Source of the DNA: Pseudomonas fragi
GTDB taxonomy: Bacteria; Pseudomonadota; Gammaproteobacteria; Pseudomonadales; Pseudomonadaceae
Direction of reading: 5' to 3'
DNA length: 64,000 nucleotides
NCBI RefSeq assembly: GCF_900105835.1
Contig: NZ_LT629783.1
Span: 3,804,501 to 3,868,500 of the forward strand
The translations under genes and the position numbers were made by a program. This document shows positions 3,381 through 24,384 of the stretch, one piece after another. Numbering within the stretch: position 1 is the stretch's first letter; each line of letters starts with the position of its first letter. The notes under the pieces are model-generated. The model was not told the origin of the DNA and searched no databases. It worked only from the letters and a program-made list of their open reading frames with translations.

Positions 3381-4982
3381 TCAGGCAAGCACAGATTGAC
3401 CATTGACCATGCGCCACAGTTCGAGTGGATTGCCATCCTGTAACGCTTCAGGCATCAAGGCTGCAGGCAGGTCCTGATAACACACCGGCCGCAAGAACCG
3501 GTCGATGGCACTGGCGCCGACGGCGCTGCTACGACTGTCCGAGCTGGCCGGGAACGGGCCGCCGTGCACCATCGCATGAGATACCTCGACATTGTTCGGG
3601 TAACCGTTCGCCAGGATCCGGCCCGCCTTGCGCTCAAGGATGGGCAGCAGTTTTCTGGCCAGCGCATGATCAGCGTGATCCAGTTGCAATGTCGCCGTCA
3701 GTTGTCCTGACAGATGCTCGGCGACCGCCAGCATTTCATCTTCATTCTTGCAGGCGACGATCAGCGAGCTGGGGCCGAATATTTCGTCGCCCAGTCGTGG
3801 CGTCGTCAGAAAAGTGGCTGCATCCGTTACGAACAAGGTGGCCTGCGCTGCACATGGCGTTTGAGCAGGGCAACCTTGCCCCAGCGTTGTAACGCCGTTG
3901 ATAGTGCCCGTCTCTTCGATACCGGCGAGGTAGGCACGATGAATCCCCGGGGTCAGCATGGTGGTCGCCGCCTTTTTGCACAGGGCGTCCTGGGCCGTGC
4001 TGCAAAACTGGGTCAGGGGCTGACCTTCCAGGGCAATCACCAGGCCCGGATTGGTACACAGTTGCCCCGCACTCATCGTCAGAGCCTCAACGAATCCACG
4101 GCTGATTTCGCTGGCGCGTATCGACAGTGCATGGGGCAACAGGAACACGGGATTGATACAGCTCATTTCGGCGTATACCGGGATCGGTTCACTGCGTTGC
4201 GCCGCTGTACGCATCAGCGCCAGGCCGCCCTGGCGCGAACCGGTGAATGCGACTGCCTTGATCGCGGGATGGCTGACCAGGGTCTGGCCGAACAGGTTAG
4301 CGTCGCCGATAAGCAGGGAAAACACGCCCTCGGGCAAGTGGTGAGCAGCGGCTGCCTGTTGAATCACCTGGCCTACCAGTTCAGACGTACCCAGGTGAGC
4401 CTCGTGCGCCTTGACCACTATCGGGCAGCCAGCGGCCAGGGCGGCGGCGCTATCGCCGCCGGCAACCGAAAACGCCAATGGAAAGTTGCTTGCACCAAAT
4501 ACAGCCACCGGGCCGAGGGCGATCTTGTGCAACCTCAGGTCGGGGCGAGAAGGGATGCGCGTCGGCAAGGCGCAGTCCAGGGTGGCGCCGAGATAGTGGC
4601 CGTCGCGCAACACTTGCGCAAACAGCCGCAACTGGCTCACGGTGCGGCTCCGTTCGATAATCAGGCGCGCGGCAGGTAATCCTGTTTCGAGAGAGGCGCG
4701 CCCGATCAGGGTGACCCCCAACGCCAGGATGCCCGTGGCAATCGATTCCAGGAATTGAGCGCGCTGCTCTGGCGTGGTCGCGCGGTAGGGATCGCAGGCT
4801 TGCTGCGCCAGCGTGCAGGCCTGATCAATGTCAGCGATACCGCCGACGCCGAAGTCGGGACTGAGCTTTTCATGGGTGGCAGGGTTGATTGCAGCCAGCG
4901 ATCCTTTGTCGCCACGCACTGCCGACTGGCCGATAAGCATTTTGCCGGTAATCATCATGTTTCCTATCGCTTGCTGTGCCAT
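3381..4982 (-). CDS. Aldehyde dehydrogenase, 2-oxoglutarate semialdehyde (2,5-dioxovalerate) dehydrogenase type
   Basis: Family members oxidise 2,5-dioxopentanoate to 2-oxoglutarate with NAD(P)+ at the end of sugar-acid or hydroxyproline breakdown. The 533-residue length and the block AEMSCINPVFLLP are typical of this subfamily. Catalytic Cys309 sits in SAGQLCTNPGLV and the general base Glu272 in AEMS. It is the last gene of the 18-gene minus-strand cluster, 47 bases after the FAD oxidase. No sugar-acid dehydratase or hydroxyproline gene is nearby, so the enzyme may serve the cluster's own chemistry by handling a C5 2-oxo aldehyde, or another aldehyde. The subfamily is well supported; the substrate here is inferred. 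Confidence 0.85.
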   Translation of the reverse strand: MAQQAIGNMMITGKMLIGQSAVRGDKGSLAAINPATHEKLSPDFGVGGIADIDQACTLAQQACDPYRATTPEQRAQFLESIATGILALGVTLIGRASLETGLPAARLIIERSRTVSQLRLFAQVLRDGHYLGATLDCALPTRIPSRPDLRLHKIALGPVAVFGASNFPLAFSVAGGDSAAALAAGCPIVVKAHEAHLGTSELVGQVIQQAAAAHHLPEGVFSLLIGDANLFGQTLVSHPAIKAVAFTGSRQGGLALMRTAAQRSEPIPVYAEMSCINPVFLLPHALSIRASEISRGFVEALTMSAGQLCTNPGLVIALEGQPLTQFCSTAQDALCKKAATTMLTPGIHRAYLAGIEETGTINGVTTLGQGCPAQTPCAAQATLFVTDAATFLTTPRLGDEIFGPSSLIVACKNEDEMLAVAEHLSGQLTATLQLDHADHALARKLLPILERKAGRILANGYPNNVEVSHAMVHGGPFPASSDSRSSAVGASAIDRFLRPVCYQDLPAALMPEALQDGNPLELWRMVNGQSVLA

Positions 4983-5029
4983 CGTCAGGCCCGATTTATC
5001 TTTGAAATGAACGGCGCAGGAGGTGGGTT

Positions 5030-6454
5030 TTAGGTGTAGCGGTAGCGGCCCAGCACCGCCTGCGGGTCCATCAACTGCTGCATGGCCCTGCTGATTGCCT
5101 GCACCCCAGGGGGTGTGTACTTGCTGTAATAAGCGGCATTCATAGGCCCGACGCCATGCTCTGCACTGAAGCAGCCGCCGTTTTCGGACACCAGCTTGTA
5201 GAGGCCGCTACGCACCGCGACTAGCTTGGCGATGCCGTACCGGGCGATATGGGCGTGCGGCACAAGCACAATCAAATGGCAGCCGCCGTCGGCAAAATGG
5301 CCGAAATCGTAAAGCTGCAGCAGCGGATGTTCGTGCTCAAGCCACTGTGCAGCCAGATCGCGGAAAGCGACCAATCGCGAGCGCGAGAACGCCACGTCGA
5401 ACGAGAGCGGGATACCTTCCTGGGCAATGGCCAGCGGCAGGTTGTCTCGCAGCGGCCAAAAGCTGCTGGCGTTGCCCAGGACGGCGTCGAGAATCCGGCC
5501 GCTTTCATACAACTGTTCCAGCACCTGCTCGGTTCGTTGCGCAAAGATCGTATGCAAGCCTGGCATGCTGCTGGCGATCTCTATCAGGGCATAACAGCTG
5601 GCCTGCGATTGGCCAAACGGGTGGCGCAGCGTGGGGAAGTTGCGCACGGTAAGGGCGAGTGCCGCTTCGGATATCACTTCGAAAGCGCACAGCAAATCGC
5701 CAAACTGATGCTCGAAGGCATCCAGTACCTGCAGCGCTGTCGCGTGGTCAGGCAAGGCCACAAACACGCTTTGCGTCGACTGGTCGATGCGTCTTAGATC
5801 AAGCGTCGCCGCCGTAATGATTCCGAAGGCGCCGCCGGTGCCCACAAACATCTGCTTGAGGTCGAGCCCGGTATTGTTCTTGCGCAACGGCGCGAGCAGT
5901 TGCACCACGGTGCCGTCGCCATCGGCCAGCACCACCTCGATACCGAGCAGGTTATGACGCATGTCGCCATGCTTGAGCAAGCGGCTGCCGCCGGCATTGG
6001 CGCCGATTAATCCGCCTATCGCCGGGTCGCTGCCGATATCAATAGGGAAGTACAGCGAATGGGTTTCCAGCTGGCGATTGAGCTCTGACAAGAGCGCGCC
6101 AGCTTCGACAATGACCGTGCGGTTCAAGGGATCAATCTCGCGCACTCGGCGCAAGCGCGAAAGGGAAACGATCACTTGCGTGCCGGAGTTGTCGGTGACG
6201 GCGCCACCCACCAATCCGCTGCGGTTGCCCTGGGCGACCAGCCGTATGCGATGGCGCACAGCGATGCGCATCAGCGCGCTGACAGCGTGGGTATCACGCG
6301 GGAGGACGACCGCCGCCGCTTTGCCACGGTAATGAGTGACGTCGATTTCATAGGGGGCACAGGCCGCTCCGGTCAGCAGCGACTCCTGCCCCAGCACTTC
6401 GGCGACTTCGGTCAGGAACGCGTGGAGTCCCGATGCAGGTTCCAGGTTGCTCAT
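5030..6454 (-). CDS. FAD-linked 2-hydroxyacid dehydrogenase-like oxidase (GlcD / D-2-hydroxyglutarate dehydrogenase family)
   Basis: A vanillyl-alcohol-oxidase-fold flavoprotein of 474 residues. The N-terminal FAD domain shows VAQGNRSGLVGGAV near residue 75 and a glycine-rich IGGLIGANAGGSRLLKHG stretch near 145-165. The C-terminal cap ends with FSAEHGVGPMNAAYY, the conserved SxEHGxG motif of GlcD, D-lactate dehydrogenase and D-2-hydroxyglutarate dehydrogenase. It probably converts a D-2-hydroxyacid to the 2-oxoacid. Its ATG overlaps the stop of the upstream membrane-protein gene by 4 bases, which indicates translational coupling. Next to a 2-oxoglutarate semialdehyde dehydrogenase-like gene, a C5 2-oxoacid link is tempting but unproven. 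Confidence 0.85.
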   Translation of the reverse strand: MSNLEPASGLHAFLTEVAEVLGQESLLTGAACAPYEIDVTHYRGKAAAVVLPRDTHAVSALMRIAVRHRIRLVAQGNRSGLVGGAVTDNSGTQVIVSLSRLRRVREIDPLNRTVIVEAGALLSELNRQLETHSLYFPIDIGSDPAIGGLIGANAGGSRLLKHGDMRHNLLGIEVVLADGDGTVVQLLAPLRKNNTGLDLKQMFVGTGGAFGIITAATLDLRRIDQSTQSVFVALPDHATALQVLDAFEHQFGDLLCAFEVISEAALALTVRNFPTLRHPFGQSQASCYALIEIASSMPGLHTIFAQRTEQVLEQLYESGRILDAVLGNASSFWPLRDNLPLAIAQEGIPLSFDVAFSRSRLVAFRDLAAQWLEHEHPLLQLYDFGHFADGGCHLIVLVPHAHIARYGIAKLVAVRSGLYKLVSENGGCFSAEHGVGPMNAAYYSKYTPPGVQAISRAMQQLMDPQAVLGRYRYT

Positions 6455-6993
6455 GGCGTCGCAACCACGCGTTTGAGCAACTGGCTGCGTGTGAGCACCA
6501 GCGCGACGATTGGCAATACGCCTCCCAGCAGCGTGTTATGGCGAAAAGCCAATGACACCGCGACGGCGATAGCAGCCGTAATCAGCAGCATCACCGAGAG
6601 TTTTCTAATCAACCCATGATCGCTGCTGGTTTCGCCGATGAAACCGAGTGGAGAAAGCTGGGTGGCCCCCATACCAATCACCAATACGCACGCCAGCACG
6701 GGCGCAGCACCCAGCTCCTGCCCCCACACTTGCAGAGCAGCGGTAGATACCGAAGCCAGCAGGGCGCCAATCATCAGGTACAGGTCGACGGCCAGTGCGA
6801 TCCAGTGGCCAGGACGGTAATTGAACAGCCAGACCATGTGGGCAATGCTCAGAATACCGCTGAGCAGATACGCAGTCTCCCAGCGCACGCCTGCCTCACC
6901 GGGGCCGAAACGGCCATACAAGAGGAACACGATGACCGGAATGAATGCGCTGGCATTCGACAAATAGGCACGGCCTAGCTTGCTGATAGACAT
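6451..6993 (-). CDS. Small multi-pass membrane protein of unknown function
   Basis: 180 residues, mostly hydrophobic, with about five predicted membrane segments (for example AFIPVIVFLLYG, WIALAVDLYLMIGALL, LACVLVIGMGATQL and MLLITAAIAVAVSLAF). I do not recognise the family. A clear AAGGAA ribosome site precedes the ATG. It lies between the ABC permease gene (46 bases upstream) and the FAD oxidase (4-base overlap), so it belongs to the same operon. It could assist export or immunity, or be an electron-accepting partner of the oxidase; the sequence does not decide. Confidence 0.6.
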   Translation of the reverse strand: MSISKLGRAYLSNASAFIPVIVFLLYGRFGPGEAGVRWETAYLLSGILSIAHMVWLFNYRPGHWIALAVDLYLMIGALLASVSTAALQVWGQELGAAPVLACVLVIGMGATQLSPLGFIGETSSDHGLIRKLSVMLLITAAIAVAVSLAFRHNTLLGGVLPIVALVLTRSQLLKRVVATP

Positions 6994-7039
6994 GCTGGTT
7001 TCCTTGAATAGAGATGCAATGAAATGCCCGGGTCGGGGC

Positions 7040-8131
7040 TTAACTTTTGTGCCAGCGGAACATGAAGGTCGCGGCAGTGAGAAACAACGTGGTCCAGCCT
7101 GCCAGGGTCAACAAGGGCAGCCACAGCGTTGTCAGGGACGCTCCGTCGAGCATCACTTGGCGCAGTACCGAGACAAACTGGTTGATCGGAACCACCGAGA
7201 GAATGCTTTTGATCCAGGCTGGCGCATCGTTCAACGGGATGGTCAGGTTGCCGAAGAACAGGGCCGGGTAATGGATCAGATGGCACAACAATTCGGTTTC
7301 TTTTATCGAGGCGGTACGACTGGCCAGCAGGGTGCCGAGGCACAGCAACATGACCCCGCCCAGCACAATGACCGGCAACGCACGCAAGGTCTGCAAACTC
7401 CACAGCGAGATGTCGATGCCGTATCCGTACCGCGCCACCAGCAGCAAGGTGCCCACCGAAATCAGCATCATGACCACCCGCGACAAGAGGATAGAGGCCA
7501 GAAAAACCAGCTTCGGCACTGGAAAACAGGCGTAGATCTTGAGGGCGTTGTGTTCACGCAAGCTGGCAATCGACAAGGCGGTGGACATGATGCCGAGTGA
7601 CATCAAACAGATGACCAAAATGCCGGTGGTAAAAAACTGGCCGTAGTCGAAGGGCTTGGCGCCGGAGGCCGTATCTTCGAAACGCACCAGGTCTGTCGAC
7701 ACAATGCCGCGCTTGGCCGCTGAACACCTGACCGCGGCGATCTCGATCACGCGTGCTGCGGCGCGTACCGCCAGCTGACCCTTGAAGTCATAGCGCACCT
7801 GCATCGGTTCGTCGCCGGCCGCAAAGACGATGCGCACCGTGTCTGCTGCGATGGGGGCAGTGCTGCTGACGGTTGAAAAATTGGCCTTTACGGGATCGCC
7901 GCCAGCAAATGCCTGCTCAATCGCCAACGGGCAGCGGGTGTCCGAACTGGCCTGGGTACCAGCTTCCTGAAACTCGACATTGACCGTACCCAGTGAGCCT
8001 GGATGACCGAAAGCCATCAGCATCACGGTCAGCAGCAGGATGGGGAAGGCCAGCGCCCAGAACAGCGCCGACTTGCTGCGGAAAAAGCCCAGCAGCTCGT
8101 TGCGCGTCAATATCGCCAGTATGCTAAACAT
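7040..8131 (-). CDS. ABC-2 type transporter permease
   Basis: A 363-residue membrane subunit of an ABC exporter. One cytoplasmic start and one long extracytoplasmic loop (about residues 40-180) are followed by a block of five or six membrane segments, the ABC-2 layout. I chose the ATG at 8131 (MFSILAILTRNELLGFFRSK) because the longer frame would extend far into the ATPase gene, while this start overlaps it by only 8 bases. With the ATPase it likely exports the cluster product and may give self-protection. The specificity is unknown. Confidence 0.85.
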   Translation of the reverse strand: MFSILAILTRNELLGFFRSKSALFWALAFPILLLTVMLMAFGHPGSLGTVNVEFQEAGTQASSDTRCPLAIEQAFAGGDPVKANFSTVSSTAPIAADTVRIVFAAGDEPMQVRYDFKGQLAVRAAARVIEIAAVRCSAAKRGIVSTDLVRFEDTASGAKPFDYGQFFTTGILVICLMSLGIMSTALSIASLREHNALKIYACFPVPKLVFLASILLSRVVMMLISVGTLLLVARYGYGIDISLWSLQTLRALPVIVLGGVMLLCLGTLLASRTASIKETELLCHLIHYPALFFGNLTIPLNDAPAWIKSILSVVPINQFVSVLRQVMLDGASLTTLWLPLLTLAGWTTLFLTAATFMFRWHKS

Positions 8132-9128
8132 CCTGTTCTCCCTGGGCGCAGATGTGCAACATATCGCGGTAGTGGGTGGGGCCGAATTCAAAGTGCTGGA
8201 ACGCAACATGACCGATCAGGGCGCGTATCAACGGATCCAGTGCCTGCGTGCCATAGACGCTGATTTCATTGCTGGATGGCCTCGACAGCCGCAGCGTGGC
8301 GCTTTCGCGTTCCAGCTGGCGATAGATGGCGTTGATCTGTTCACTGTCGTCCAGTTGCAGACGAGCATGGAAGGTGCCGACCAGACGGTTCTTCAGTGCT
8401 TCTTTATCGCCCCGATACTCAACCCCGCCATTGCACACCCACACCACATCGCTGGCGGCATCCAGTTCTTCCTCCGAGTGGCAAATCATGATGATGGTCA
8501 GGCCAGCCAGGTCGTAGCGCAGCAGGTGTGCGACGCGCTCGATATAAGCGCGGTCAAGCCCGGTAAACGGTTCATCAAGTACGACAAGTTCCGGATGATG
8601 GGCCAGCGCCACGAACAAATCGAGCCGCTGCTTTTGACCGCGTGACAGTGCCCGATAGGGCAGTTTGCGCAGCGCTTCGATGTCCAGTGCCTGCGCCACC
8701 AGCGGGTCTTGTTTGCCGTACAGGGCCTGATGCAAATCGAGGATTTCCCTGACATTCGACGAGTCTTCATATTCGACCCGTTGCAATTGCACCCCCAGCC
8801 GCTTGCGGTGGCGGGTGCTTTGCAGAAAGCGCGCCGCCGCAACCCCCAGAATCTGCGCGTCTTCCAGATGTGCCTGACGGAAGCCGAGCAAGGCTTCGAC
8901 CAGGGTGGTCTTGCCGGCGCCATTGGGGCCGATGATGGCGGTATGCCGACCGCGGCGAAACTGCAGATCGCGGACCTCGAAGCGGAAACTGCCGGCGCTG
9001 ACCCGGATCAGTTTGGCCGCCGCCGCATAGGGTTCCTCAGTACGCGTGGGTGCCAAGTGCATCCCGGGATCCACGGCGGGTTCGGACAGCCCGTGTTTGT
9101 CGTCTGTCAGCAGGATTTGACTGTTCAT
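8124..9128 (-). CDS. ABC transporter ATP-binding protein
   Basis: The energy subunit of the exporter encoded with the downstream ABC-2 permease. It shows Walker A GPNGAGKTT, signature LSRGQKQR and Walker B LVVLDEPF, then the ICHSEEELD switch region. About 40 residues precede the nucleotide-binding core, and a roughly 80-residue C-terminal tail follows it. The ATG at 9128 is preferred over a TTG six bases upstream. It begins 2 bases after the stop of the dioxygenase gene, so translation is probably coupled. Confidence 0.88.
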   Translation of the reverse strand: MNSQILLTDDKHGLSEPAVDPGMHLAPTRTEEPYAAAAKLIRVSAGSFRFEVRDLQFRRGRHTAIIGPNGAGKTTLVEALLGFRQAHLEDAQILGVAAARFLQSTRHRKRLGVQLQRVEYEDSSNVREILDLHQALYGKQDPLVAQALDIEALRKLPYRALSRGQKQRLDLFVALAHHPELVVLDEPFTGLDRAYIERVAHLLRYDLAGLTIIMICHSEEELDAASDVVWVCNGGVEYRGDKEALKNRLVGTFHARLQLDDSEQINAIYRQLERESATLRLSRPSSNEISVYGTQALDPLIRALIGHVAFQHFEFGPTHYRDMLHICAQGEQDV

Positions 9129-9130
9129 GT

Positions 9131-10192
9131 TCAATCGAACAACGCGACTTGGACATCGCGTTGGCCTTTGAAGGGATTGCGACCATGGGCGACGGCAATG
9201 TTATCGATCAACAGCAGGTCACCGCTGTGCCAGGGAAACGCGATCTCCTGCGCCTCAAGCGCGTCGTAAATCGGCGCGATATCAGCCTCCGGGATCGGCG
9301 TACCGTCGCCCAGCCGCACCTCGTAAGGGCGTGCCGGTTTGTCCTGATAGGCGCGCTGGATATAGGCGTAACCCGGCTTGCCGAGGGAGCGGGCATTGTT
9401 GTGTTGGGTCGACAGTTGATTGAACCAGATGGATTCGCCCGTCAGCGGATGTTTCAACATGGCGTCACCGGTATGCGACACCGTGATGCTGCCATCGTCG
9501 AGCCATTGGTAATCGAGGTGTGTGTCGCGGCACAGCTGTTCCACCTGCTGCGGATCATCGGTCAGGAACGCTTCATTCCAGGGGCGGTGGTATTCGCGCA
9601 TATGGGTGTTGCGCGGTTCATTCCCGGGCGTGCTGGGGGCACGGAAGTTGCGCAAGTACTGGATGCGCGCGCCGCTGAAGCGTTCGATCAAGTGCGGCGG
9701 CAGGCGACGGGTAACGGCTCGCATGTCGCACAGGATGGTTTCGCCGCCTTCTGCTGAGGGCTGTTTGCAAAAGAAGGCGAGTTTCTATGGATAGTGGGCC
9801 ATGTAGGCCTTTTCCTGATGCAGGCCGATTTTCAGGGTGGGCGGGATGCGGGTCGATTCGTAGACTCTGCCCTCGATATTGTTGCGTGGCGTGGCGCCGC
9901 CGATATAACCGAATGCATGCTCAGGATACTGTTGCGCAATGGCCTGGAAGTCCGCGCTTTCGCGCAGTGCAAAACCACGGAACAACAGGCAACCGAACGC
10001 CAGCAGCATGCTGTCGAAAATCGACTGGTGGTGGCGATACCACGTCGCAAACGCTTCGCTGTCATCGCTTAGCGTGCGGTCCACGGGCGTTATAACGAGT
10101 GGCATGGGCCCGTGTGGCAGGAAACCACACTGCACCTGCGAGCTGCCCAGCATTGCCTGAAAGTGCTCAACCCGATCTGTACGTTGATCCAT
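9131..10192 (-). pseudogene. TauD/TfdA-type Fe(II)/2-oxoglutarate dioxygenase interrupted by an in-frame amber codon
   Basis: A non-haem iron oxygenase that would hydroxylate, desaturate or otherwise oxidise the product. Codons 1-135 and 137-353 are in the same frame and join into one normal-length protein, broken only by TAG at 9787-9785 (codon 136). The iron ligands lie on both sides: His125 and Glu127 in GLHQEKAY before the stop, His336 in AVAHGRNPFKGQR after it. The conserved block right after the stop, KLAFFCKQPSAEGGET, is typical of the family and continues without a break. A single base change from several sense codons would create the TAG. Possible readings are recent inactivation, amber suppression or a sequence error. 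A downstream restart at Met157 would lack two iron ligands. Confidence 0.85.
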
Positions 10193-10217
10193 AGCCTTTT
10201 CCCCGGCGAGTTGCGTA

Positions 10218-10880
10218 TCAAACCAACAAAGGCTTTTTAATGAGGATTTCGAAACCCAGTGCGCCCATGCCCGAACGAGGGCTGGTCACCACCGTGCAAT
10301 GCTCCAGACCCGCCTCGATGACCAGTTCGCGCGCTTCTTGCAGGGTGACCTTTTCTTCAACATGGGTCGGTGGATAGCCCACCGATGCGCGCATTTGAGT
10401 GAATTTCTCCAGCAAGTCGGGGGCCACGTCGCGGCGCATGTCGTGTACCAGGCCGACTCCGCCCGGCTGCAGGACGCGGTACATCTCGGTCAGGCTTTTC
10501 ACCTTGTCCGGCAAGTGATGCAAGGTGGCGCGGCTGACCGCCATGGTCAGGCTGTTGTCCGCGAAGGGCAGGTCCAGGGCGTCGCCCACCTTGAGTTCGA
10601 TGGTGTCGCTCAGGCCGAGCGCTTCGATACGCGGTCGGCCACCGTCGAGCATGGTTTCGTCCAGATCGAGGCCGATGAAATGCCAGCCTTTCAATACCGG
10701 GTCGGCCGCCAGGCGCACCGGCACCACGACGGTGGCCGTGCCGATATCGACCAGGGCGCCGGCGGGCAGGTCGCGGGCAATCTGGCGGATGCGGGTGACG
10801 AACATCACGTCCCAAGGCTCCAGTGCTTGCGAGGCAAAGCGATCGTATTCGTCAGCAGGGCGTAGATTTTTCAATAACAT
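10218..10880 (-). CDS. Class I SAM-dependent methyltransferase
   Basis: A 220-residue Rossmann-fold methyltransferase of the UbiE/Methyltransf_11 type. Motif I is ALVDIGTATVVVPVRLA near residue 42, slightly unusual in having GTAT where GxGxG is common. The acidic motif FIGLDLDETML follows, then GDALDLPFADNSL and the motif LHHLPDKVKSLTEMYRVLQPGG. The C-terminal part has a small lid region. It precedes the dioxygenase gene by 25 bases and likely methylates an oxygen, nitrogen or carboxylate of the cluster product. The substrate cannot be read from sequence. Confidence 0.82.
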   Translation of the reverse strand: MLLKNLRPADEYDRFASQALEPWDVMFVTRIRQIARDLPAGALVDIGTATVVVPVRLAADPVLKGWHFIGLDLDETMLDGGRPRIEALGLSDTIELKVGDALDLPFADNSLTMAVSRATLHHLPDKVKSLTEMYRVLQPGGVGLVHDMRRDVAPDLLEKFTQMRASVGYPPTHVEEKVTLQEARELVIEAGLEHCTVVTSPRSGMGALGFEILIKKPLLV

Positions 10881-10955
10881 TTATAAGTTCCCGTATGAAA
10901 TGGCGTTACAAGGATTCCGCGTTGGCATAGCAATGGCGGTCTGCGTCTGGCTGCC

Positions 10956-13958: not shown

Positions 13959-13994
13959 AGGTTTTCCTGATTAATAAGCGGTTTGCATCCGGGT

Positions 13995-14990: not shown

Positions 14991-14994
14991 GAGG

Positions 14995-16569: not shown

Positions 16570-16579
16570 GGTGACGTCC

Positions 16580-17755
16580 CTAGGACTGGTGGATATAGGT
16601 GTGTGCCGGGCTTTGCGAGAGAAAAGCGCTGACGCTATACGTCTGGTTATAGGCGCCGCAGTTGTCGAAGATCACCAGATCGCCCACGCTCGGCGGGGCC
16701 GACACGTCATGGCTCCAGCCGATCACGTCGGCGCGGCTGCAGGTGCTGCCCACGAACTGGGTCGGCAACAGGGGCGCGTCAACCGGTGCCTGCTGGCGCC
16801 GCAGCAGGCGCGGTTGCGCGTAGTTCTTCAACATGGATTCGGTTTTGGCCAGCAGGAAATTGTGGCTCAGGCCACCGTCGCAGACGGCAACGTAGCGTTC
16901 ACCCAAGGCTTTGACTGAACGCACGCGGGTCACGAAGGTACCTGCGCCAGCGAAGACGCCGCGTCCGGACTCGTGGACGACCTTGAAGTCTTCGTGCAGT
17001 GGGGCAATACGCTGGCGATACGCGTCAAACGTCTGTGCCTGGTTGTGCAAGTGCTCGGAGAAACCGCCGCCGACGTTAAGAAACGTAACGGGCAGGCCGG
17101 TCAGTCGTGCGACTTGTGGCGCAAAGGCAGCGAGCGCATGGGCAAGGGCGGCGGCATCGGCGCCCTTGTCATCTATGTGGAAACTGTTGGAACCCGCAAA
17201 CGTATGGAGGCCGACGATGGGCACGTTGGCCTGGGTCAATGCAGCCGTCGTCAGCAAGGCGTCGTGGCGGCTCATGCCGAAATGGTCCGCCATGTGTTTG
17301 CCCGAGCTGAGCAATTGACCCGCGTTCAAGCGCAATACCGTTTGCGGGGCGGCCTGTTTACCGATGACGCGAATCAGTCGCTGCGCCTGCTCCAGGCTGT
17401 CGATGATGAACGTGCAACGTGAGGCCAGGGCCGCGCGCATGAACTCTTCATCCATGGACGGATTGTTCACGTATTTGGGGGCGTTGATGCGACCCGCGAC
17501 AATATCGAGTTCGCCCTGGCTGGCCAGCTCCACACCGTCGATGAAGGCGTGGCCGCAGCGGATCAACAAGTCCAGATTGGGGTTGGCCTTGAGCGACACA
17601 ATCAGCGGTGTACCCAAGCGCTCACGTAAGTCAGCGTAACGGGCCATTACGACGGTGGGGTCCAGTACATAGCACGGCGTTTTCAGATTCAGCAGCCATT
17701 CTTCGGTCTTGGCGTCGTCGCTCCTGACCGGCGGAGAAGCGTTGGTCATGGTCAT
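16580..17755 (-). CDS. Type III (alanine-racemase fold) PLP-dependent decarboxylase
   Basis: 391 residues of the ornithine/diaminopimelate decarboxylase family. The PLP lysine is Lys56 in VSLKANPN. His187 lies in LHTFAGS, the phosphate-binding loop is NVGGGF at 227-232, and HESGRG at 261-266 replaces the usual EPGR. Cys339 and Asp343 (GSTCSRAD) provide the residues that close the partner active site. FDNCGAY at 363-369 matches the late family motif. BtrK (butirosin) and SbnH (staphyloferrin B) show that such enzymes can decarboxylate carrier-bound or conjugated amino acids, and an ACP gene is present here. It starts 1 base after the preceding stop. The substrate is unknown. Confidence 0.87.
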   Translation of the reverse strand: MTMTNASPPVRSDDAKTEEWLLNLKTPCYVLDPTVVMARYADLRERLGTPLIVSLKANPNLDLLIRCGHAFIDGVELASQGELDIVAGRINAPKYVNNPSMDEEFMRAALASRCTFIIDSLEQAQRLIRVIGKQAAPQTVLRLNAGQLLSSGKHMADHFGMSRHDALLTTAALTQANVPIVGLHTFAGSNSFHIDDKGADAAALAHALAAFAPQVARLTGLPVTFLNVGGGFSEHLHNQAQTFDAYRQRIAPLHEDFKVVHESGRGVFAGAGTFVTRVRSVKALGERYVAVCDGGLSHNFLLAKTESMLKNYAQPRLLRRQQAPVDAPLLPTQFVGSTCSRADVIGWSHDVSAPPSVGDLVIFDNCGAYNQTYSVSAFLSQSPAHTYIHQS

Positions 17756-17756
17756 G

Positions 17757-18734
17757 TCAATTCACCGGATGAAGGGTCAATGCCGAGAATGAACCGTTGT
17801 CCGATTCCGTTATATTCATCAGGTGCGCCCCGCCATCGACCTTGCTCAGGCCCCTATCGGCCAGGTTGATCGCCAGGTCCGAGCCAAAGGAATGACCCTT
17901 GTTCAGGATGTTGTCGCTATAGAGCGTGGTGGCGGGAATCGCCATGGCGCCACAGAAGGCGTTCCAGCCAGAGTGGTTGGAGTTGTAAGGCAAAATGCAG
18001 GTGAAATCGCTGAGCGCCATGCCGCAGTCGGCCACGGCTTCCATCATGACTTTGCGGGTGTAGTGCCACTCCAGGTTGAACATGGCCTGTTTCACCGCGT
18101 TATTGGTCACGGAGCCCAGGTACCAGCTGCCATAATTGCGCACGGCCGTCGCGCCAACCCGGTTACGGCGGCTGTTACGGGTCACCAGCAGGCACCCCGC
18201 GCCATCACTTAATATGCTCGCCTGCAGCACCCGGTAACGCTCGATAAAGACACGATCGGACGAGACGATCAGCACCGAATTCAGTTGGCTATGCACCTTC
18301 ATCAGGGCCTGGGCCATTTGAATGGCAACACTGATCGACGAACAATTGAGCTGTGCGATCGACCCGGCCCAGACAGGCTTTATGCCGAATGCCGCGGCCA
18401 CTTCCAGCGGCAGGCTGCGTGGCGCCGGCGGTACGCTGAACAGCCCGGTATGCACATGGATCACTGCACCGATGTCGCTGCCCTTGAAGCTTTGCTCCTC
18501 TTGCAGGCGGGCAACAGCGCGCTTGGCCAGCTCGACCTCGTCGATGTCCGGTGCCACATGGAAATATCGGCAACCCGCATTGCGGATCATCTCAAAGCGC
18601 TCGGCGGGCAACTTGTGGTGCTGAGCCCAGTCATTGAGGTCCTGGCGTTCGCCGGGCAATTCGTATGCGGCGGCTTCAATACCGATCGTGAAGGGGGCGG
18701 GGCTGTTTGTTGCCGCGATAGTTGGGGGCGTCAT
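17757..18734 (-). CDS. Ketosynthase-III-like enzyme with active-site cysteine
   Basis: 325 residues from the ATG at 18734, chosen because it follows an AGGAAG ribosome site and avoids overlap with the di-iron gene. It has the thiolase fold of KAS III: the probable nucleophile is Cys131 in SIAQLNCSSISVAIQMA. The usual histidine region reads LPYNSNHSGW rather than HQAN, and the late loop reads NKGHSFGSDLAINL rather than GNTSAAS. This GH-F-GSD variant is shared with the KAS III-like protein encoded at 20309-21187, so the two are probably related in function. It could do a Claisen condensation or transfer an acyl group from the ACP. Confidence 0.8.
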   Translation of the reverse strand: MTPPTIAATNSPAPFTIGIEAAAYELPGERQDLNDWAQHHKLPAERFEMIRNAGCRYFHVAPDIDEVELAKRAVARLQEEQSFKGSDIGAVIHVHTGLFSVPPAPRSLPLEVAAAFGIKPVWAGSIAQLNCSSISVAIQMAQALMKVHSQLNSVLIVSSDRVFIERYRVLQASILSDGAGCLLVTRNSRRNRVGATAVRNYGSWYLGSVTNNAVKQAMFNLEWHYTRKVMMEAVADCGMALSDFTCILPYNSNHSGWNAFCGAMAIPATTLYSDNILNKGHSFGSDLAINLADRGLSKVDGGAHLMNITESDNGSFSALTLHPVN

Positions 18735-18747
18735 GACTGTCTTCCTG

Positions 18748-19737
18748 TTAAGCCGGCATTGGCATGGCGGCGTAATCCAGCACTTTGAGCTTTTCAAAGG
18801 CATCGCTTACACGGGGCGTCAGCAAACCCATTTCGCGGATGGTTGGCACCAGCCGCCGGAAAATGGAACGGCGCATGGAGTTGGCCACTTCCGAACTCCT
18901 GACCAGATGGCTGCACTCTTTTTTGGATAGGCCCATCGGCTCCCATATGTCGTCGGCGCACAGGTGTTCGTACAAGGTGTAAGCCCCTTCAACCACAAAC
19001 TCTTCGCGTTCCTTGCGTTCAGTGCTGCTCATTTCCTTGTACACACTGCCCAGCGTGATGCGGCCAATGGCGAAGTGGCGCGCCTCATCGCGCTGAATGC
19101 GCGTCATCAGGTCTTTGATAAAAGGGTCTTTGGTGTAGGCGACCATGCTTTGAAACAGTGACAGCGCAATACCCTCCACCAGCACTTGCATACCCAGGTT
19201 GGTCATGTCGAGCTTGCTGGTGGTAATGGTCTCTTCCAGCAGGCCTTTGAGCGCCTTGCTCATGGGGTAGCTGATCGGCAGCTTGTTATTGACCAGGCGA
19301 CCGAAGGCTTCGATATGACGGGCTTCATCGATGATTTGCCCGGCGGCACAGAGACGGGCCGAGAGGCTTTCTTCGGCCACCGCCAGTTTCGATGCGCAAA
19401 TCAGGGCCGCCTGTTCACCGTGCAGTACCTGTGACAGGGTCCAGCCTTGGGAGTGATGGCGAATTTCGGCACGGTTTTTTTCATTCATTTTGTTCCAGAC
19501 ATCGGTGCCGTAGATCAGCAGTGTGCCGTCCGGCATGCCCAGTGGATTGTCCGGGTTGAGCTCGTAGCTCCAATCAATGTCGGTATTGACATCCCACTGG
19601 TTGGCCTTGGTTTTCTGATACAGCGCATTCAAGCTGTCATTGCTGAAATCGTAGGTCTGCGACATGAACGCATCGACCGAGAAATTCCACTTGATCGGCT
19701 CGCCATCATCCAGTGCCTGTTTGTGCTCTTTTTGCAT
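18748..19737 (-). CDS. Ferritin-like di-iron oxygenase/desaturase-type protein
   Basis: 329 residues from the ATG at 19737, which follows an AGGGGTG ribosome site 2 bases after the upstream stop. The four-helix iron site is readable: Glu108 (HGEQAAL), Glu138/His141 (IIDEARHIEAF), Glu188 (VEGIAL) and Glu218/His221 (QRDEARHFAIG). Four Glu and two His fit R2-like oxidases, acyl-ACP desaturases and related monooxygenases. The extra histidine of AurF-type N-oxygenases is not seen. It probably uses O2 to hydroxylate or desaturate a carrier-bound or free intermediate. No dedicated reductase or ferredoxin is encoded in the cluster. Confidence 0.8.
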   Translation of the reverse strand: MQKEHKQALDDGEPIKWNFSVDAFMSQTYDFSNDSLNALYQKTKANQWDVNTDIDWSYELNPDNPLGMPDGTLLIYGTDVWNKMNEKNRAEIRHHSQGWTLSQVLHGEQAALICASKLAVAEESLSARLCAAGQIIDEARHIEAFGRLVNNKLPISYPMSKALKGLLEETITTSKLDMTNLGMQVLVEGIALSLFQSMVAYTKDPFIKDLMTRIQRDEARHFAIGRITLGSVYKEMSSTERKEREEFVVEGAYTLYEHLCADDIWEPMGLSKKECSHLVRSSEVANSMRRSIFRRLVPTIREMGLLTPRVSDAFEKLKVLDYAAMPMPA

Positions 19738-19739
19738 GA

Positions 19740-20312
19740 TCACCCCTGTACGTGCGTGCATTTCGGTTGAGATGTGGTGAACGGCCCATGCACAGGTGAT
19801 GGGTGCACCTGCGCCACGAAGTAGTCCAGGTCGGGCAAGAACCACTCGGTGATGGCTGGGGTGTGTGCGGTATTCCAGGCGGCGATATGCAGGCGGTTAT
19901 CGCCGCCGTCCCACAGGTCGCGCCGAATCTGTTCGGCGCTGATCCAGACCACCGGCGTCTCTAGCTGGCGTGCCCAGAACAGGGCTTCATTGGATAAATG
20001 GGCGCCCAGGGTTACGCGTGGATCGAGCAGGTTTTTTGGCAACGCAAGGTCGATGGACGGCATGCGTACCTGCGCCAGGAGCCGCGTGTGTTCGCCGCAG
20101 CGGTCCCAAATGTGTTGGGCCAGCGTCGACAGCAGGGTGTAGTACTGCTGGTTGTTGACCAGCACCGGCGTGGGGTTGTGGTGTGCGTAAACACTTCGGC
20201 GTGCATAGTCTTGCGTTTCGAACAGTGGCAGGTTGCGAGCCGAACAAGGGACAGGCCGGCTGTGATCCGGATTGCGCTGCAACAGCAGCGAACAGGTTTG
20301 CGCGCTCTTCAC
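19740..20312 (-). CDS. Protein of unknown family within the biosynthetic operon
   Basis: 190 residues; I do not recognise it. It starts at GTG with a 4-base GTGA overlap with the preceding stop and ends 2 bases before the next gene, so it is tightly embedded and probably real. The text is soluble with no membrane segment. Distinct stretches are VLVNNQQYYTLLSTLAQHIWDRC, LGAHLSNEALFWARQLETPVVWISAEQIRRDLWDG and EWFLPDLDYFVAQVHPSP. The several conserved-looking Trp and His residues suggest an enzyme or partner protein. It sits between a KAS III-like gene and the di-iron gene and may work with one of them. Confidence 0.6.
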   Translation of the reverse strand: MKSAQTCSLLLQRNPDHSRPVPCSARNLPLFETQDYARRSVYAHHNPTPVLVNNQQYYTLLSTLAQHIWDRCGEHTRLLAQVRMPSIDLALPKNLLDPRVTLGAHLSNEALFWARQLETPVVWISAEQIRRDLWDGGDNRLHIAAWNTAHTPAITEWFLPDLDYFVAQVHPSPVHGPFTTSQPKCTHVQG

Positions 20313-21187
20313 ATTTCACCTTCCAGTGCATGGTGCAGATCGGGCGCGAGGGTTATCTGGGCAATCGAAAAATAGCCGTTCATGGCCAGCGACGACACGA
20401 TGCAGTCGCTGCCGGGGTGCGCGGAGCCCGCGCCAAGCTCGCCCAGTAGTGAAAGCCAGGGGTCGCTGCCGAAGGAATGACCGAATCGCTGATAATGGTC
20501 GGCGTGTACGCAAGCCGTGTCGAAGCACTTGAACAGGGCGCGGCGCGACATCTCGGGGAAAAACGGTACGGCGATACCCAGGCCAGGCCGGCTTTCGGTG
20601 AAACTGCGCAGGCCTCGCCCTAATTGCAGCAGCGCATTGGCCTGGCTTGCAGTGCCGATGAACAGCATGTTTTGAGCCTCTGCAATTACATCAATCACTA
20701 AGGTGCAGATGCCAAACCCGGATTTGCCCCAACGGTTGTTGCCTAGCCAGTAAGTAAAATTGTGGATGTCTGTGTCGACAATCTGCAGCAACAGCCTGCG
20801 ACGCCCGTTGAACTGCGCCTTGCCCTGGATATAGCGCAGGATGAAACCCCAACCCGTGCATTCATAGGCGTTGGTTATCCAGTCAGGACGGCGCCCGTAA
20901 TGGCTGGTTATCGCCTCCTGGAAATAGTCTGCATGGGGCGAACCGTCAGCCAAAAACTGGGACAGCACGGTCGAGCTCACCACGTAATCGTCGATAGGCC
21001 CTGCGTCGCTTGCATAACGGCACGCCTCATCGCCTACCCGCTGCCCCAACGCCAACGCTGCATCCTCCAGGCTCACCTGGGGCGACACAAAGGGTGTTTC
21101 TGTGCGCAGGTAAGCCAGCGTATGGACCGTGAAAGCCGGAACGGTGCCAAGTGACGGCGTTGATGCAAAGGGCGGCGAGTTCGACAT
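20309..21187 (-). CDS. Short ketosynthase-III-like enzyme
   Basis: 292 residues, shorter than the usual 310-330 for KAS III. The probable nucleophile is Cys110 in WITNAYECTGWGFILRY. The late loop reads RFGHSFGSDPWLSLLGEL, the same GHSFGSD pattern as the protein at 17757-18734. The usual HQAN histidine block is not evident. It lies 31 bases after the ACP gene and overlaps the next gene by 4 bases. It may form a pair with the other cysteine-bearing KAS III-like protein, or use the ACP-bound acyl chain in a condensation or transfer. This is inferred from family and position. Confidence 0.75.
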   Translation of the reverse strand: MSNSPPFASTPSLGTVPAFTVHTLAYLRTETPFVSPQVSLEDAALALGQRVGDEACRYASDAGPIDDYVVSSTVLSQFLADGSPHADYFQEAITSHYGRRPDWITNAYECTGWGFILRYIQGKAQFNGRRRLLLQIVDTDIHNFTYWLGNNRWGKSGFGICTLVIDVIAEAQNMLFIGTASQANALLQLGRGLRSFTESRPGLGIAVPFFPEMSRRALFKCFDTACVHADHYQRFGHSFGSDPWLSLLGELGAGSAHPGSDCIVSSLAMNGYFSIAQITLAPDLHHALEGEM

Positions 21188-21218
21188 GGTGAGCTTCTGG
21201 TATGAGGGTGGCTGGCGA

Positions 21219-21470
21219 TCAGGCGACTTGTTGCTGATGCAACTGGGTGTCGATTTGCTCCAGGGTGGTGTACTGCGTGATGTTCAGTTGCTCAGGGTCA
21301 ATGGATCCGTAGAGCTGTTCGCAATAGACGATCAGCTCAACCACATTGAGTGAATCAATACCCAGTTCACCCAAGCCGACGTGGGTATCGACGGATTCGA
21401 TATTGAGAATCTTGGCGGCTTCTTTCTTCAGAAGTTCCAGGGTGTTGAGGGTTTCAGTCGTCGTTGTCAT
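21219..21470 (-). CDS. Acyl carrier protein
   Basis: An 83-residue carrier that holds the growing acyl or aminoacyl group on phosphopantetheine. The attachment site is Ser40 in ELGIDSLNVVELIVY. The protein has the short acidic four-helix pattern of stand-alone ACPs. The ribosome site AGGAG before the ATG is strong. It lies 27 bases after the acyl-CoA-dehydrogenase-like gene and 31 bases before a KAS III-like gene, between enzymes that would load, oxidise and transfer its cargo. No phosphopantetheinyl transferase gene is in the cluster, so a housekeeping one must act on it. Confidence 0.93.
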   Translation of the reverse strand: MTTTTETLNTLELLKKEAAKILNIESVDTHVGLGELGIDSLNVVELIVYCEQLYGSIDPEQLNITQYTTLEQIDTQLHQQQVA

Positions 21471-21497
21471 AGGTGCTTCTCCTGGGGGTAGAGCGGA

Positions 21498-22589
21498 TTA
21501 AAGTGAGTCGGATTCAGGCTTGGCCACGCGCATGCTTGCGCGCAATTCGTGGTAACAGCGGTAAGAGCTGCCTTCCATTTTGGTAAACGCCAACAGGTCA
21601 CGCTGGTCGAGAAAACTCGGCACGGCGCCGCGGCTGACCAGATGCAAAAGCAGTTCATTGGAGGCGAGTTTCAGTGCCAGTACGCGCTGCACGTCTTCGC
21701 TCTCGTAGCGGTCGGAGAGCGTCTTGGTGCGGGCGGCGGCGGCGATGAAATCGCGGGACGCGCGTTCGTCCGGCGTCAGTTCGAGGCGCCCCTGACTAGC
21801 CAGCCAGTCAAGATGGGCCATCAGTGCACGCACCAGAAAAGGCCGTACCGTCGTCAGGTATTTTTTGAGTACCGCGGGGCCGCCCACTGTCAGGCGATCC
21901 TCCTGGGAAACCTGCACCGTGCCCTTGACGTTCCCCAACTGCACGACATCGCCGAGAAAGGGCTCGCCGCAGAGCGTTCGCTTGAGGGTCTTGTATTGCT
22001 CGGGCCAGACCAGGAAGGCCGACGGGAAAAACGAGCCCGGCGTGCGGGCGGCGACGATGGCCATACCGTCAAGGTTGGCGTACATGCCCCAGACCTTGTC
22101 GATATGCAGCTTGAAACCCTCACCTTCCGGCTGGGCGACCGTGCGCCAGCTCGTGAGGGTTGGGCCGCCGGCATCACTCATCAGGAAACGCAGGGCGCTG
22201 CCGGCATCAATGCTGGCGCGGGCCCGTGCATATTGATCCGGCGTCAGGAACAGCGAAAACAAATGGGCGAAGTTCTGCATGAAGGATCGGTAGTGCAACG
22301 CCAGACCGTCTTGCTGAATGCGCTCCAGAATATGTTCCAACTCGTGGGTCGGCTGCGACAGGGCCACCGAGGGTCGGTTCAATTGTTCGGCAAACTCGTA
22401 GTTGTGCATCGTCTGCAAAATCAACATGTCTGAATCCATCAATCGCACGCAAGCGCGCGAGATAATCTGGATCAAGTGAGCAGGCAGTTCGCCATATATG
22501 GATAAGCGATGAACAACCGGTTGTGCACAAAGATTCAATAATGAATGACGTGACGAACGAGCATCCATACCTTGCGTCAAGGTTTGCAT
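21498..22589 (-). CDS. Acyl-CoA dehydrogenase-like flavoenzyme
   Basis: A 363-residue protein with the three-part acyl-CoA-dehydrogenase build: an N-terminal helical region, a middle beta region around ALRFLMSDAGGPTLTSWRTVAQPEGEGFKLHIDKVWG (about residues 135-170), and C-terminal helices. The usual FAD motifs are weakened, and no clear catalytic Glu is seen in the last part. In tambjamine-type pathways a dehydrogenase of this class oxidises a carrier-bound fatty acid after loading by an acyl-AMP ligase, and the same trio (ligase, dehydrogenase, ACP) is encoded here in a row. That role is inferred. The ATG at 22589 lies 67 bases after the ligase stop. Confidence 0.75.
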   Translation of the reverse strand: MQTLTQGMDARSSRHSLLNLCAQPVVHRLSIYGELPAHLIQIISRACVRLMDSDMLILQTMHNYEFAEQLNRPSVALSQPTHELEHILERIQQDGLALHYRSFMQNFAHLFSLFLTPDQYARARASIDAGSALRFLMSDAGGPTLTSWRTVAQPEGEGFKLHIDKVWGMYANLDGMAIVAARTPGSFFPSAFLVWPEQYKTLKRTLCGEPFLGDVVQLGNVKGTVQVSQEDRLTVGGPAVLKKYLTTVRPFLVRALMAHLDWLASQGRLELTPDERASRDFIAAAARTKTLSDRYESEDVQRVLALKLASNELLLHLVSRGAVPSFLDQRDLLAFTKMEGSSYRCYHELRASMRVAKPESDSL

Positions 22590-22656
22590 AGTGAGTGGTC
22601 CAGTATTTAAAAGTTGCAGTGCGTCAGACGATCGGTGTCACTGGTTGGCAGGTACT

Positions 22657-24384
22657 TTAAATAACAAGCTGCTCTATATCGGTTGTGTCTTTATTGTCCA
22701 TTACTGTTTGGAGATAAATTGTCCGACACTCCAGGCGTTTAAGTTTGTTGCTGGTGGTGCGTGGCAAACTTCCGGGTGCAACGAAGGTGATGGCGTGGGC
22801 ACCAAATCCAAACTTGTCGCGCAACTGGTTTTGAAGTTGGGTGCGCAGCTCGATTTGAGCCTGTTTCGCGTCAAGCTCGATCATAATCGCCAGGCTTTCG
22901 GTTCTCTGCGCTTCGTCGTAGATACCGAAGGCCGCAACGGCATTACCGCCGCTGGCCAATAAAGGGTGTGAGGCAATGACATCTTCAATTTCATGGGGGA
23001 AATAATTACTGCCACGGATGATGATCAGTTCTTTCTTGCGGCCGAGTACAAACACATGTTCATCCACTCGATAACCTATATCCCCGGTCGCAAACCAGTC
23101 GCCGCTTTGGTACGGCTCGGCCTGGCCTGCGGCGGGTAAATAGCCGGACATGACCGAGGTGCCGCGTATAAAGATTTCGCCTACTTCGCGGTCCTTGGCG
23201 TCGGAACGGTCCAGGGCTTTGACGGCAACTTGCATGCCCTCAATCGGCCGGCCCATCGACAGTACGGTTTCTACCCTGCGAGTGTTCTCGTCCGCGCGGC
23301 GAGCCTGCCAATGGTCGATCACCGCGCCGGAATCGATACGGTCAGCAATGACGTAGGCGAGCGCCTGCTTGTCGTAATTGAAGTTCGTATTGTGCATGGT
23401 CACCGCCAGCGTCGATTCCGCCATGCCGTAACAAGGCTGCAGCGCAGACCGTGAAAGCCCGTGCGGAGCGAATGTCTGTGCAAAGTCCCGCAGGCAAACT
23501 TCATCCACCCTTTCGGCGCCGACAAAGATATTGCGCAACTTGTGCAGATCCACCTCTTTCATGGACGCTTCGCGGTAACGGCGAATGCAATACTGCAGGG
23601 CGAACGTCGGCGCCGCCGTGGTGGTTGCGCCAAAGCTGGACATGCGCTTGAGCCAGCCCAGCGGGTTGCGAATAAAGCTGGCCGGCTGCATCAACAGCAG
23701 GGGTGCCTGGTAATACAGGTTCGACAGAAGCGTCACCAGGCCCATGTCGTGATGCAGCGGCAGCCAGGAAGCAGAGGCGTCGCCGCGCTCGGCACTGTAG
23801 CCAACCACACCGCCGATACCGCGCACATTGGCGATGACATTGCGATGGCTGAGGATGGCGGCCTTGGGGCGACCGGTCGAGCCCGACGTCAGTTGCACAT
23901 GATGGCCGCTGTCTGGTTGGCAGCGTTCCACGCGCACTGGAAACCCTGCGCTGGCAGCGACCCTTACCTCTGCGCTTGAGACCACACGCACAGGCATGCG
24001 AGCCAGCAAACTCTGGAGTGCGGGGGTGTTGCTTTCGGATGCGATCAGCAGGCGCGGTGCAAACAACTGACAGGCAACATGTATCTGGTTGCGCGGCGAG
24101 TCTGCCATCAGCCTTCCAGGCAGCGCGACGGTGCAAGGCAAGGCGCCAATCAACACGCATCCAGTCAGTAGCAACAAATGATCGATGGATGCCGGCAGGG
24201 CAAGAGTAACCAAGTCATTACGAACAACCCCCAGTTCGGTCAGGGCTGAAGAAACAGCCAATGCTTGTTGTGCCAATGCCGCATAGGAAATGCTCTTTTC
24301 TTCCCCGTTCTCTTCTATGACAGTAATCTGTCGCAGTGCGCTTTGCTGTGGGTTATCCAGGGCAGACAAAATAGCATCGATCAT
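22657..24384 (-). CDS. Fatty-acyl-AMP ligase (FAAL-like)
   Basis: A 575-residue ANL enzyme, the first gene of the cluster. It has the P-loop HVQLTSGSTGRPK at 162-174. The block SWLPLHHDMGLVTLL and then LMQPASFIRNPLGWLKRM is characteristic of fatty-acyl-AMP ligases. FATGDIGYRVDEHVFVLGR, ELIIIRGSNYFPHEIEDV and, near the end, LPRTTSNKLKR follow. It would activate a fatty acid and load it on the adjacent ACP without CoA. I chose the ATG at 24384 rather than a TTG nine bases upstream. The first residues have only a weak GGAAA ribosome site. The chain length accepted is unknown. Confidence 0.87.
   Translation of the reverse strand: MIDAILSALDNPQQSALRQITVIEENGEEKSISYAALAQQALAVSSALTELGVVRNDLVTLALPASIDHLLLLTGCVLIGALPCTVALPGRLMADSPRNQIHVACQLFAPRLLIASESNTPALQSLLARMPVRVVSSAEVRVAASAGFPVRVERCQPDSGHHVQLTSGSTGRPKAAILSHRNVIANVRGIGGVVGYSAERGDASASWLPLHHDMGLVTLLSNLYYQAPLLLMQPASFIRNPLGWLKRMSSFGATTTAAPTFALQYCIRRYREASMKEVDLHKLRNIFVGAERVDEVCLRDFAQTFAPHGLSRSALQPCYGMAESTLAVTMHNTNFNYDKQALAYVIADRIDSGAVIDHWQARRADENTRRVETVLSMGRPIEGMQVAVKALDRSDAKDREVGEIFIRGTSVMSGYLPAAGQAEPYQSGDWFATGDIGYRVDEHVFVLGRKKELIIIRGSNYFPHEIEDVIASHPLLASGGNAVAAFGIYDEAQRTESLAIMIELDAKQAQIELRTQLQNQLRDKFGFGAHAITFVAPGSLPRTTSNKLKRLECRTIYLQTVMDNKDTTDIEQLVI

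What the first reader, a model, noticed from the sequence alone, without database searches (positions are those of the whole stretch)
3381..24384. Undescribed 18-gene acyl/amine biosynthetic operon without NRPS or PKS modules
Eighteen minus-strand genes follow one another with gaps mostly under 80 bases and several 4-base overlaps, from a fatty-acyl-AMP ligase to a semialdehyde dehydrogenase. The set has two acid-activating ligases, a free-standing ACP, three KAS III-like enzymes, two acyl-CoA-dehydrogenase units, a citrate-synthase-like domain, a PLP decarboxylase, a di-iron protein, a 2-oxoglutarate dioxygenase, a methyltransferase and an ABC exporter. I know of no described pathway with this combination. 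Inference: an exported acyl-derived amino acid, amine or keto compound, built by condensing an ACP-bound acyl group with an amino-acid or 2-oxoacid unit and then oxidised and methylated.
Basis: partly seen in the sequence, partly recalled or inferred. Interest (0 to 1): 0.95.

Follow-up and report, generated by a model that had tools for sequence, protein, structure and literature searches.

The report
Pseudomonas version of Burkholderia antifungal cluster
This run of 18 bacterial genes is not an unknown pathway but a compact Pseudomonas version of the Burkholderia 'afc' cluster, which makes the antifungal lipopeptide AFC-BC11 without a normal peptide synthetase; the new parts are the host, a fused enzyme, some missing genes and one gene interrupted by a stop codon.

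Summary
In detail: 18 closely packed minus-strand genes lie at 3381-24384. The claim 'no described pathway' does not. Seventeen of the 18 match, in the same order, the afc cluster of Burkholderia, whose product AFC-BC11 and core enzymology were published in 2025 (PMC12186527). Key residues fit: carrier Ser40, the L-Asp-orienting Arg of AfcQ, and Cys/His/Asp of AfcL. The whole genome has no match to the NRPS condensation domain. So the locus most likely makes an acyl-(dehydro-beta-alanine)n-lysine-type lipopeptide.

Differences: dehydrogenase AfcE and citrate-synthase-like AfcS are fused in the window and 6 of 6 other Pseudomonas loci, but separate in 8 of 8 non-Pseudomonas loci. Queries for AfcC, AfcD, FtsX, LolA, outer-membrane and ShvR genes found nothing in the window. 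An aldehyde dehydrogenase is added. afcU (dioxygenase) has an in-frame TAG here but is open in 12 of 12 relatives tested. The cluster sits in a variable site, empty in 2 of 6 relatives. Searches of one open-access library found no report of afc in Pseudomonas. Verdict: new variant of a known kind.

The parts
22657..24384 (-). afcA: fatty acyl-AMP ligase (575 aa)
   Evidence: AMP-binding/FAAL families, NCBIfam scores below their cut-offs; 52-53% to B. cenocepacia/B. arboris afcA
21498..22589 (-). afcJ: ACAD-like protein (by position)
   Evidence: no Pfam or NCBIfam match; 50-51% to the gene at the afcJ position
21219..21470 (-). afcK: carrier protein, Ser40
   Evidence: PP-binding; 69% to afcK; Ser40
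20309..21187 (-). afcL: KAS III-like acyltransferase
   Evidence: 44% to afcL; Cys110/His237/Asp242 = Burkholderia Cys111/His238/Asp243
19740..20312 (-). afcM: 190-aa protein of unknown fold
   Evidence: 35-41% over part to the afcM position; fold search inconclusive
18748..19737 (-). afcN: AurF-like di-iron protein
   Evidence: PF11583; 70-71% to afcN; start by alignment
17757..18734 (-). afcO: KAS III-like protein
   Evidence: ACP_syn_III; 47%; Cys/His/Asp kept
16580..17755 (-). afcP: PLP decarboxylase
   Evidence: Orn/DAP decarboxylase families; best PDB matches are BtrK; 50-51%
14995..16569 (-). afcQ: stand-alone adenylation enzyme, predicted for L-Asp (side-chain carboxylate)
   Evidence: TIGR03098 above cut-off; 61% to B. 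arboris; Arg309 and Lys502 match AfcQ Arg311/Lys503
13995..14990 (-). afcR: degenerate KAS III-like protein
   Evidence: ACP_syn_III_C; 43%
10956..13958 (-). afcE-afcS fusion: acyl-CoA-dehydrogenase-like plus citrate-synthase-like
   Evidence: Pfam; 62-63% to AfcE and 48% to AfcS, two genes in Burkholderia; one 1000-aa frame; fusion survey of relatives
10218..10880 (-). afcT: SAM methyltransferase
   Evidence: Methyltransf_11; 66-68%
9131..10192 (-). afcU: TauD-like dioxygenase gene interrupted by an in-frame TAG at 9785-9787
   Evidence: TauD clear on the C-terminal piece, weak (E 0.06, below cut-off) on the N-terminal piece; both match one Burkholderia gene; 12 of 12 relatives tested are open
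8124..9134 (-). afcV: ABC exporter ATPase
   Evidence: ABC_tran; 45-46%
7040..8131 (-). afcW: ABC-2 permease
   Evidence: ABC2_membrane_3; 46-48%
6451..6993 (-). afcX: small protein, membrane-associated according to the afc paper
   Evidence: no family; 47-48% to the afcX position; paper
5030..6454 (-). afcF: FAD-linked oxidase (GlcD type)
   Evidence: FAD_binding_4/FAD-oxidase_C; 51-52%
3381..4982 (-). aldehyde dehydrogenase; no match in the Burkholderia or Trinickia stretches held
   Evidence: Aldedh; none in L029/L030 or L078; after afcF in 5 of 5 Pseudomonas stretches held, in one of them (G283) only residues 1-320 align; also in C. sinusclupearum

Best explanation
An afc-type biosynthetic cluster in a Pseudomonas of the P. 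fragi group. By homology to the characterised Burkholderia enzymes: AfcQ adenylates L-Asp on its side-chain carboxylate and loads it on AfcK; AfcP decarboxylates it to beta-alanyl-AfcK; repetition gives a short beta-alanine chain; the FAAL AfcA caps it with a fatty acid; AfcE dehydrogenates the beta-alanines; AfcL takes the chain as a thioester and passes it to lysyl-CoA; AfcS, AfcF and AfcT install an O-methylated malate at the far end of the acyl chain; AfcV/W export it. For Burkholderia, the steps of AfcQ/K/P, AfcA and AfcL were reconstituted in vitro (AfcL with synthetic surrogates), AfcS/F/T were assigned by knockouts, and the role of AfcE is that paper's expectation from the bolagladin homologue BolQ (PMC12186527). 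The export role of V/W and everything for this strain are inferred. No AfcC homologue was found, so the terminal lysine is predicted to stay saturated, as in the published afcC mutant (m/z 736.41), if chain and repeat number are the same. Because afcU is interrupted here, this strain may make an altered product or none.
For: Colinear 17-gene match with two Burkholderia afc loci; 22 of 32 returned loci, in four genera, hold the A-to-E core in order; catalytic and specificity residues kept; BtrK as best PDB relative of AfcP; no condensation-domain match in the whole genome, while the control rings in 4 of 14 genomes, over the cut-off in 3; published mechanism.
Against: afcU has an internal stop. 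Genes for AfcC, AfcD, FtsX, LolA-like, outer-membrane protein and ShvR were not found in the window, so product, export or regulation may differ. The empty AfcC genome search has no positive control, and three generic desaturases exist elsewhere. AfcR has Ala where the Burkholderia, Chromobacterium and Trinickia rows have Glu or Asp. AfcM is only 35-41% identical over part of its length. PMC6301696 reports that the citrate synthase gene BCAS0207 and the ABC transporter gene BCAS0204 are dispensable for antifungal activity in B. cenocepacia (passage), so parts of the scheme are not essential to activity. No metabolite data.
Confidence: 0.88

Rival explanations
1. A different, undescribed acyl/amine pathway that merely shares enzyme families with afc.
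For: Added ALDH; missing desaturases and one transport system; several genes only 35-50% identical to Burkholderia.
Against: Colinearity over 17 genes, conserved Arg309/Lys502, Ser40 and Cys/His/Asp sites, and bridging Chromobacterium clusters at 54-84% mean identity over the genes compared.
Confidence: 0.04
2. A bolagladin-type pathway: the citrate-derived acyl and dehydro-beta-alanine starter feeds a modular NRPS.
For: The afc paper calls BolR, BolE, BolQ and BolS homologues of AfcS, AfcF, AfcE and AfcT.
Against: No condensation-domain match anywhere in this genome; the run carries AfcL/M/O/R in the afc order. The bolagladin proteins themselves were not compared here.
Confidence: 0.03
3. The locus is an afc cluster that is decaying or silent in this strain, so no finished product is made. 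This does not exclude the best explanation: it concerns this strain only.
For: In-frame TAG in afcU, open in 12 of 12 relatives tested; no ShvR-like regulator found in the window; the site varies between relatives; one other Pseudomonas cluster (G283) also shows damage, in afcM, afcV and ALDH.
Against: The other 17 reading frames are open, with 85-97% mean identity to 6 Pseudomonas loci for the 13 of them compared, afcV only in part; the stop could be a sequencing error; no afcU mutant appears in the text I read.
Confidence: 0.3

Closest known systems
afc cluster of the Burkholderia cepacia complex (AFC-BC11; PMC12186527, PMC6301696)
   Same: 17 of 18 genes in the same order; key residues of AfcK, AfcL and AfcQ; no condensation domains
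   Different: AfcE and AfcS fused; the four genes between afcA and afcJ (ABC ATPase, FtsX-type, LolA-like, outer-membrane) and the divergent AfcC/AfcD/ShvR side not found in the window; ALDH added; afcU interrupted; one gene run instead of two divergent operons
Chromobacterium afc-like clusters (L049-L052; no report)
   Same: Same compact A-J-K-L-M-N-O-P-Q-R-E-S-T-U-X order where the contig reaches; ALDH after afcF in C. sinusclupearum
   Different: E and S separate; no ABC pair V/W between U and X in the three that reach X; C. sinusclupearum has a diaminobutyrate transaminase between afcF and ALDH
Bolagladin cluster of B. gladioli (PMC7756342, passages)
   Same: Citrate-derived fatty acid, beta-alanine dehydrogenation and O-methylation enzymes, as reported
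   Different: Bolagladin uses a modular NRPS; none here
BtrK / VinN-type aminoacyl-carrier loading
   Same: AfcP nearest in PDB to BtrK; AfcQ keeps the Arg that the paper equates with VinN Arg331
   Different: According to the afc paper, iterative peptide formation instead of one starter unit

Membership tests
afc (AFC-BC11) biosynthetic cluster | Colinear core A, J-T and F with homologues of each gene | tested here: met
afc (AFC-BC11) biosynthetic cluster | AfcQ with the Arg that orients L-Asp and a single carrier with conserved Ser40 | tested here: met
afc (AFC-BC11) biosynthetic cluster | KAS III-like AfcL with Cys/His/Asp | tested here: met
afc (AFC-BC11) biosynthetic cluster | No NRPS condensation domain | tested here: met
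   whole genome, 0 matches; control rings in 4 of 14, over the cut-off in 3
afc (AFC-BC11) biosynthetic cluster | AfcC lysine desaturase in the cluster (needed for the dehydro-lysine of AFC-BC11 itself) | tested here: not met
   so the locus is afc-type and is not claimed to make AFC-BC11 itself
afc (AFC-BC11) biosynthetic cluster | ShvR regulator beside the cluster | tested here: not met
   (query: the LysR protein at the ShvR position of B. arboris)
afc (AFC-BC11) biosynthetic cluster | Production of an acyl-(dehydro-beta-alanine)3 peptide | not testable with these tools
   needs culture and LC-MS
Bolagladin cluster | Modular NRPS | tested here: not met
Exosortase A-associated ligase TIGR03098 | Score above curated cut-off | tested here: met
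   AfcQ 627.4 bits against 592.35
Exosortase A-associated ligase TIGR03098 | Exosortase system nearby | not tested
   no search for an exosortase was made

The most novel reading that the evidence does not exclude
The Pseudomonas clusters make a new congener family: an acyl-(dehydro-beta-alanine)n peptide with an unmodified or ALDH-altered terminus. Their natural AfcE-AfcS fusion shows that the dehydrogenase and the citrate-synthase-like enzyme work on the same intermediate, so AfcE may act during building of the malate-fatty-acid end as well as, or instead of, on the beta-alanine chain.
Probability: 0.25. Interest if true: 0.6.

Novelty: new variant of a known kind. Interest (0 to 1): 0.4.

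Why it matters
It takes a very unusual, condensation-domain-free way of making peptides beyond Burkholderia and Trinickia into Pseudomonas species of the P. fragi group and Chromobacterium. It gives, by comparison, a core shared by the 22 loci examined, and a natural enzyme fusion bearing on the step the 2025 paper left open, how the citrate-derived unit joins the acyl chain. It also gives carriers outside Burkholderia in which the chemistry could be studied.

Full report
What was checked. The 18 minus-strand genes at 3381-24384 are real, tightly packed and have the claimed families. Three proteins without any Pfam match could be named only by synteny.

What it is. tblastn of the ACAD-citrate-synthase protein against plasmid records matched 877 records, but only two, Burkholderia cenocepacia and B. 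arboris megaplasmids, over 80% of the query or more: 57% identity over 99%. The 190-residue protein hit the same two records and no others. Gene-by-gene comparison gave 17 of 18 genes in the same order, 35-70% identical, with four further genes between afcA and afcJ in Burkholderia. This is the afc cluster. Its product AFC-BC11 is an acyl-(dehydro-beta-alanine)3-dehydrolysine lipopeptide, made by a carrier protein, a stand-alone adenylation enzyme, a PLP decarboxylase, a FAAL and a KAS III-like acyltransferase, without condensation domains (PMC12186527, main text parts 1-4 of 5 read; PMC6301696, passages; bolagladin paper PMC7756342, passages; other papers seen as search listings only).

Residues. 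Window AfcK has Ser40 as published. AfcL has Cys110/His237/Asp242, aligned to B. arboris Cys111/His238/Asp243, Cys111 being the published number. AfcQ has Arg309/Lys502 for the published Arg311/Lys503; B. arboris has 309/501, the same spacing of 192 as published. In the window plus 23 related loci the Arg, the Ser and the AfcL Cys/His/Asp are kept in 24 of 24 rows; the AfcQ lysine is kept in 23, the remaining row (L061) having a gap there. The genome has no condensation-domain match.

Host and distribution. Neighbouring genes RmlD and MscS are 99% and 95% identical to the P. fragi F1801 locus, so I infer a Pseudomonas of the P. fragi group; the species is not told. Within the genus 5 of 398 genomes sampled (own included) match afcM. 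The AfcN profile scan of GTDB contigs gave 214 candidate stretches and 32 loci: 6 Pseudomonas, 4 Chromobacterium, 11 Burkholderia and 1 Trinickia with the whole A-to-E core, 1 Pseudorhodoferax with a rearranged subset, and 9 distant metagenome loci without the cluster. That scan needs short exact words, so it is a lower bound. A FastTree tree of AfcN, P, O and R from 19 of the 23 afc-like loci plus the window (four Burkholderia left out), rooted on the long Pseudorhodoferax branch, puts Pseudomonas with Chromobacterium, apart from Burkholderia and Trinickia (support 0.988 and 0.999 on the branches concerned). Chromobacterium being a betaproteobacterium (recalled), this suggests horizontal transfer, though the root is weak.

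Differences from Burkholderia. AfcE and AfcS form one 998-1000-residue protein in 6 of 6 Pseudomonas loci and in the window, but are separate in 4 Chromobacterium, 3 Burkholderia and 1 Trinickia locus, all 8 of those tested, and in both reference loci. Queries for the AfcC-like and AfcD-like desaturases, FtsX permease, LolA-like protein, outer-membrane protein and ShvR gave nothing at E 1e-5 in the window, the 6 Pseudomonas or the 4 Chromobacterium loci; the ABC ATPase query hit only two other ABC ATPases in the window. AfcC had no match in the whole genome (no positive control). The ALDH follows afcF in 5 of 5 Pseudomonas stretches, in G283 with only residues 1-320 aligned, and in C. sinusclupearum; it was not found in the 5.1 kb contig of C. 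alticapitis nor in the Burkholderia and Trinickia stretches. afcU is interrupted by TAG in the window and open in 12 of 12 relatives tested.

Genomic site. In two relatives without the cluster the left flank and mscS on the right lie about 250-260 bases apart; in the window a PQQ dehydrogenase gene (gcd-like), oprB and the 18 genes lie between them. Of six mscS neighbourhoods examined two were empty, three held other genes and one did not match on the left side; a seventh stretch (G015) was fetched for its oprB only. It is a variable insertion site.

Mechanism. See Best explanation. Shown for Burkholderia by others: loading, decarboxylation, capping, AfcL transfer, and knockouts. Inferred here: all of it for Pseudomonas, the saturated lysine, the role of the ALDH and the meaning of the fusion.

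Novelty. The kind is known; the host range, the fusion, the trimmed gene set and the ALDH are, within my paper searches, unreported.

Noticed in passing
L147-L163 and window 14995-17755: AfcQ scores above the cut-off of TIGR03098, a ligase model of hypothetical function named after exosortase A systems. Sixteen of 16 other matches at E 1e-150 (8 of them over the cut-off) keep the L-Asp-orienting Arg, and 11 of 16 have an AfcP-like match (24-28% identity) within the roughly 1.5 kb held. This suggests that those loci also load and decarboxylate aspartate on a carrier protein; exosortase genes were not looked for.
   Followed up: partly
L075:13678-16586: The C. sinusclupearum afc-like cluster has a diaminobutyrate-2-oxoglutarate transaminase between afcF and the ALDH, hinting at diaminobutyrate in its product.
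   Followed up: partly
window 13995-14990: AfcR of Pseudomonas has Ala at the acidic position of the published Thr/His/Glu triad (7 of 7 Pseudomonas rows, window included; Glu or Asp in the 16 Chromobacterium, Burkholderia and Trinickia rows).
   Followed up: partly
window 1-27172: Variable insertion site between a gene left of the window and mscS; three of six relatives hold different genes there.
   Followed up: partly
   Followed up: no
L029:15324-16912: In the B. cenocepacia plasmid record afcQ lies in two reading frames, while it is one frame in B. arboris; possibly a sequencing error.
   Followed up: no
L065: Pseudorhodoferax sp. Leaf274 carries a rearranged set of afc-like genes (Q, V, W, K, P, L, R, O, N) at 28-58% identity, perhaps a distinct related pathway.
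   Followed up: no
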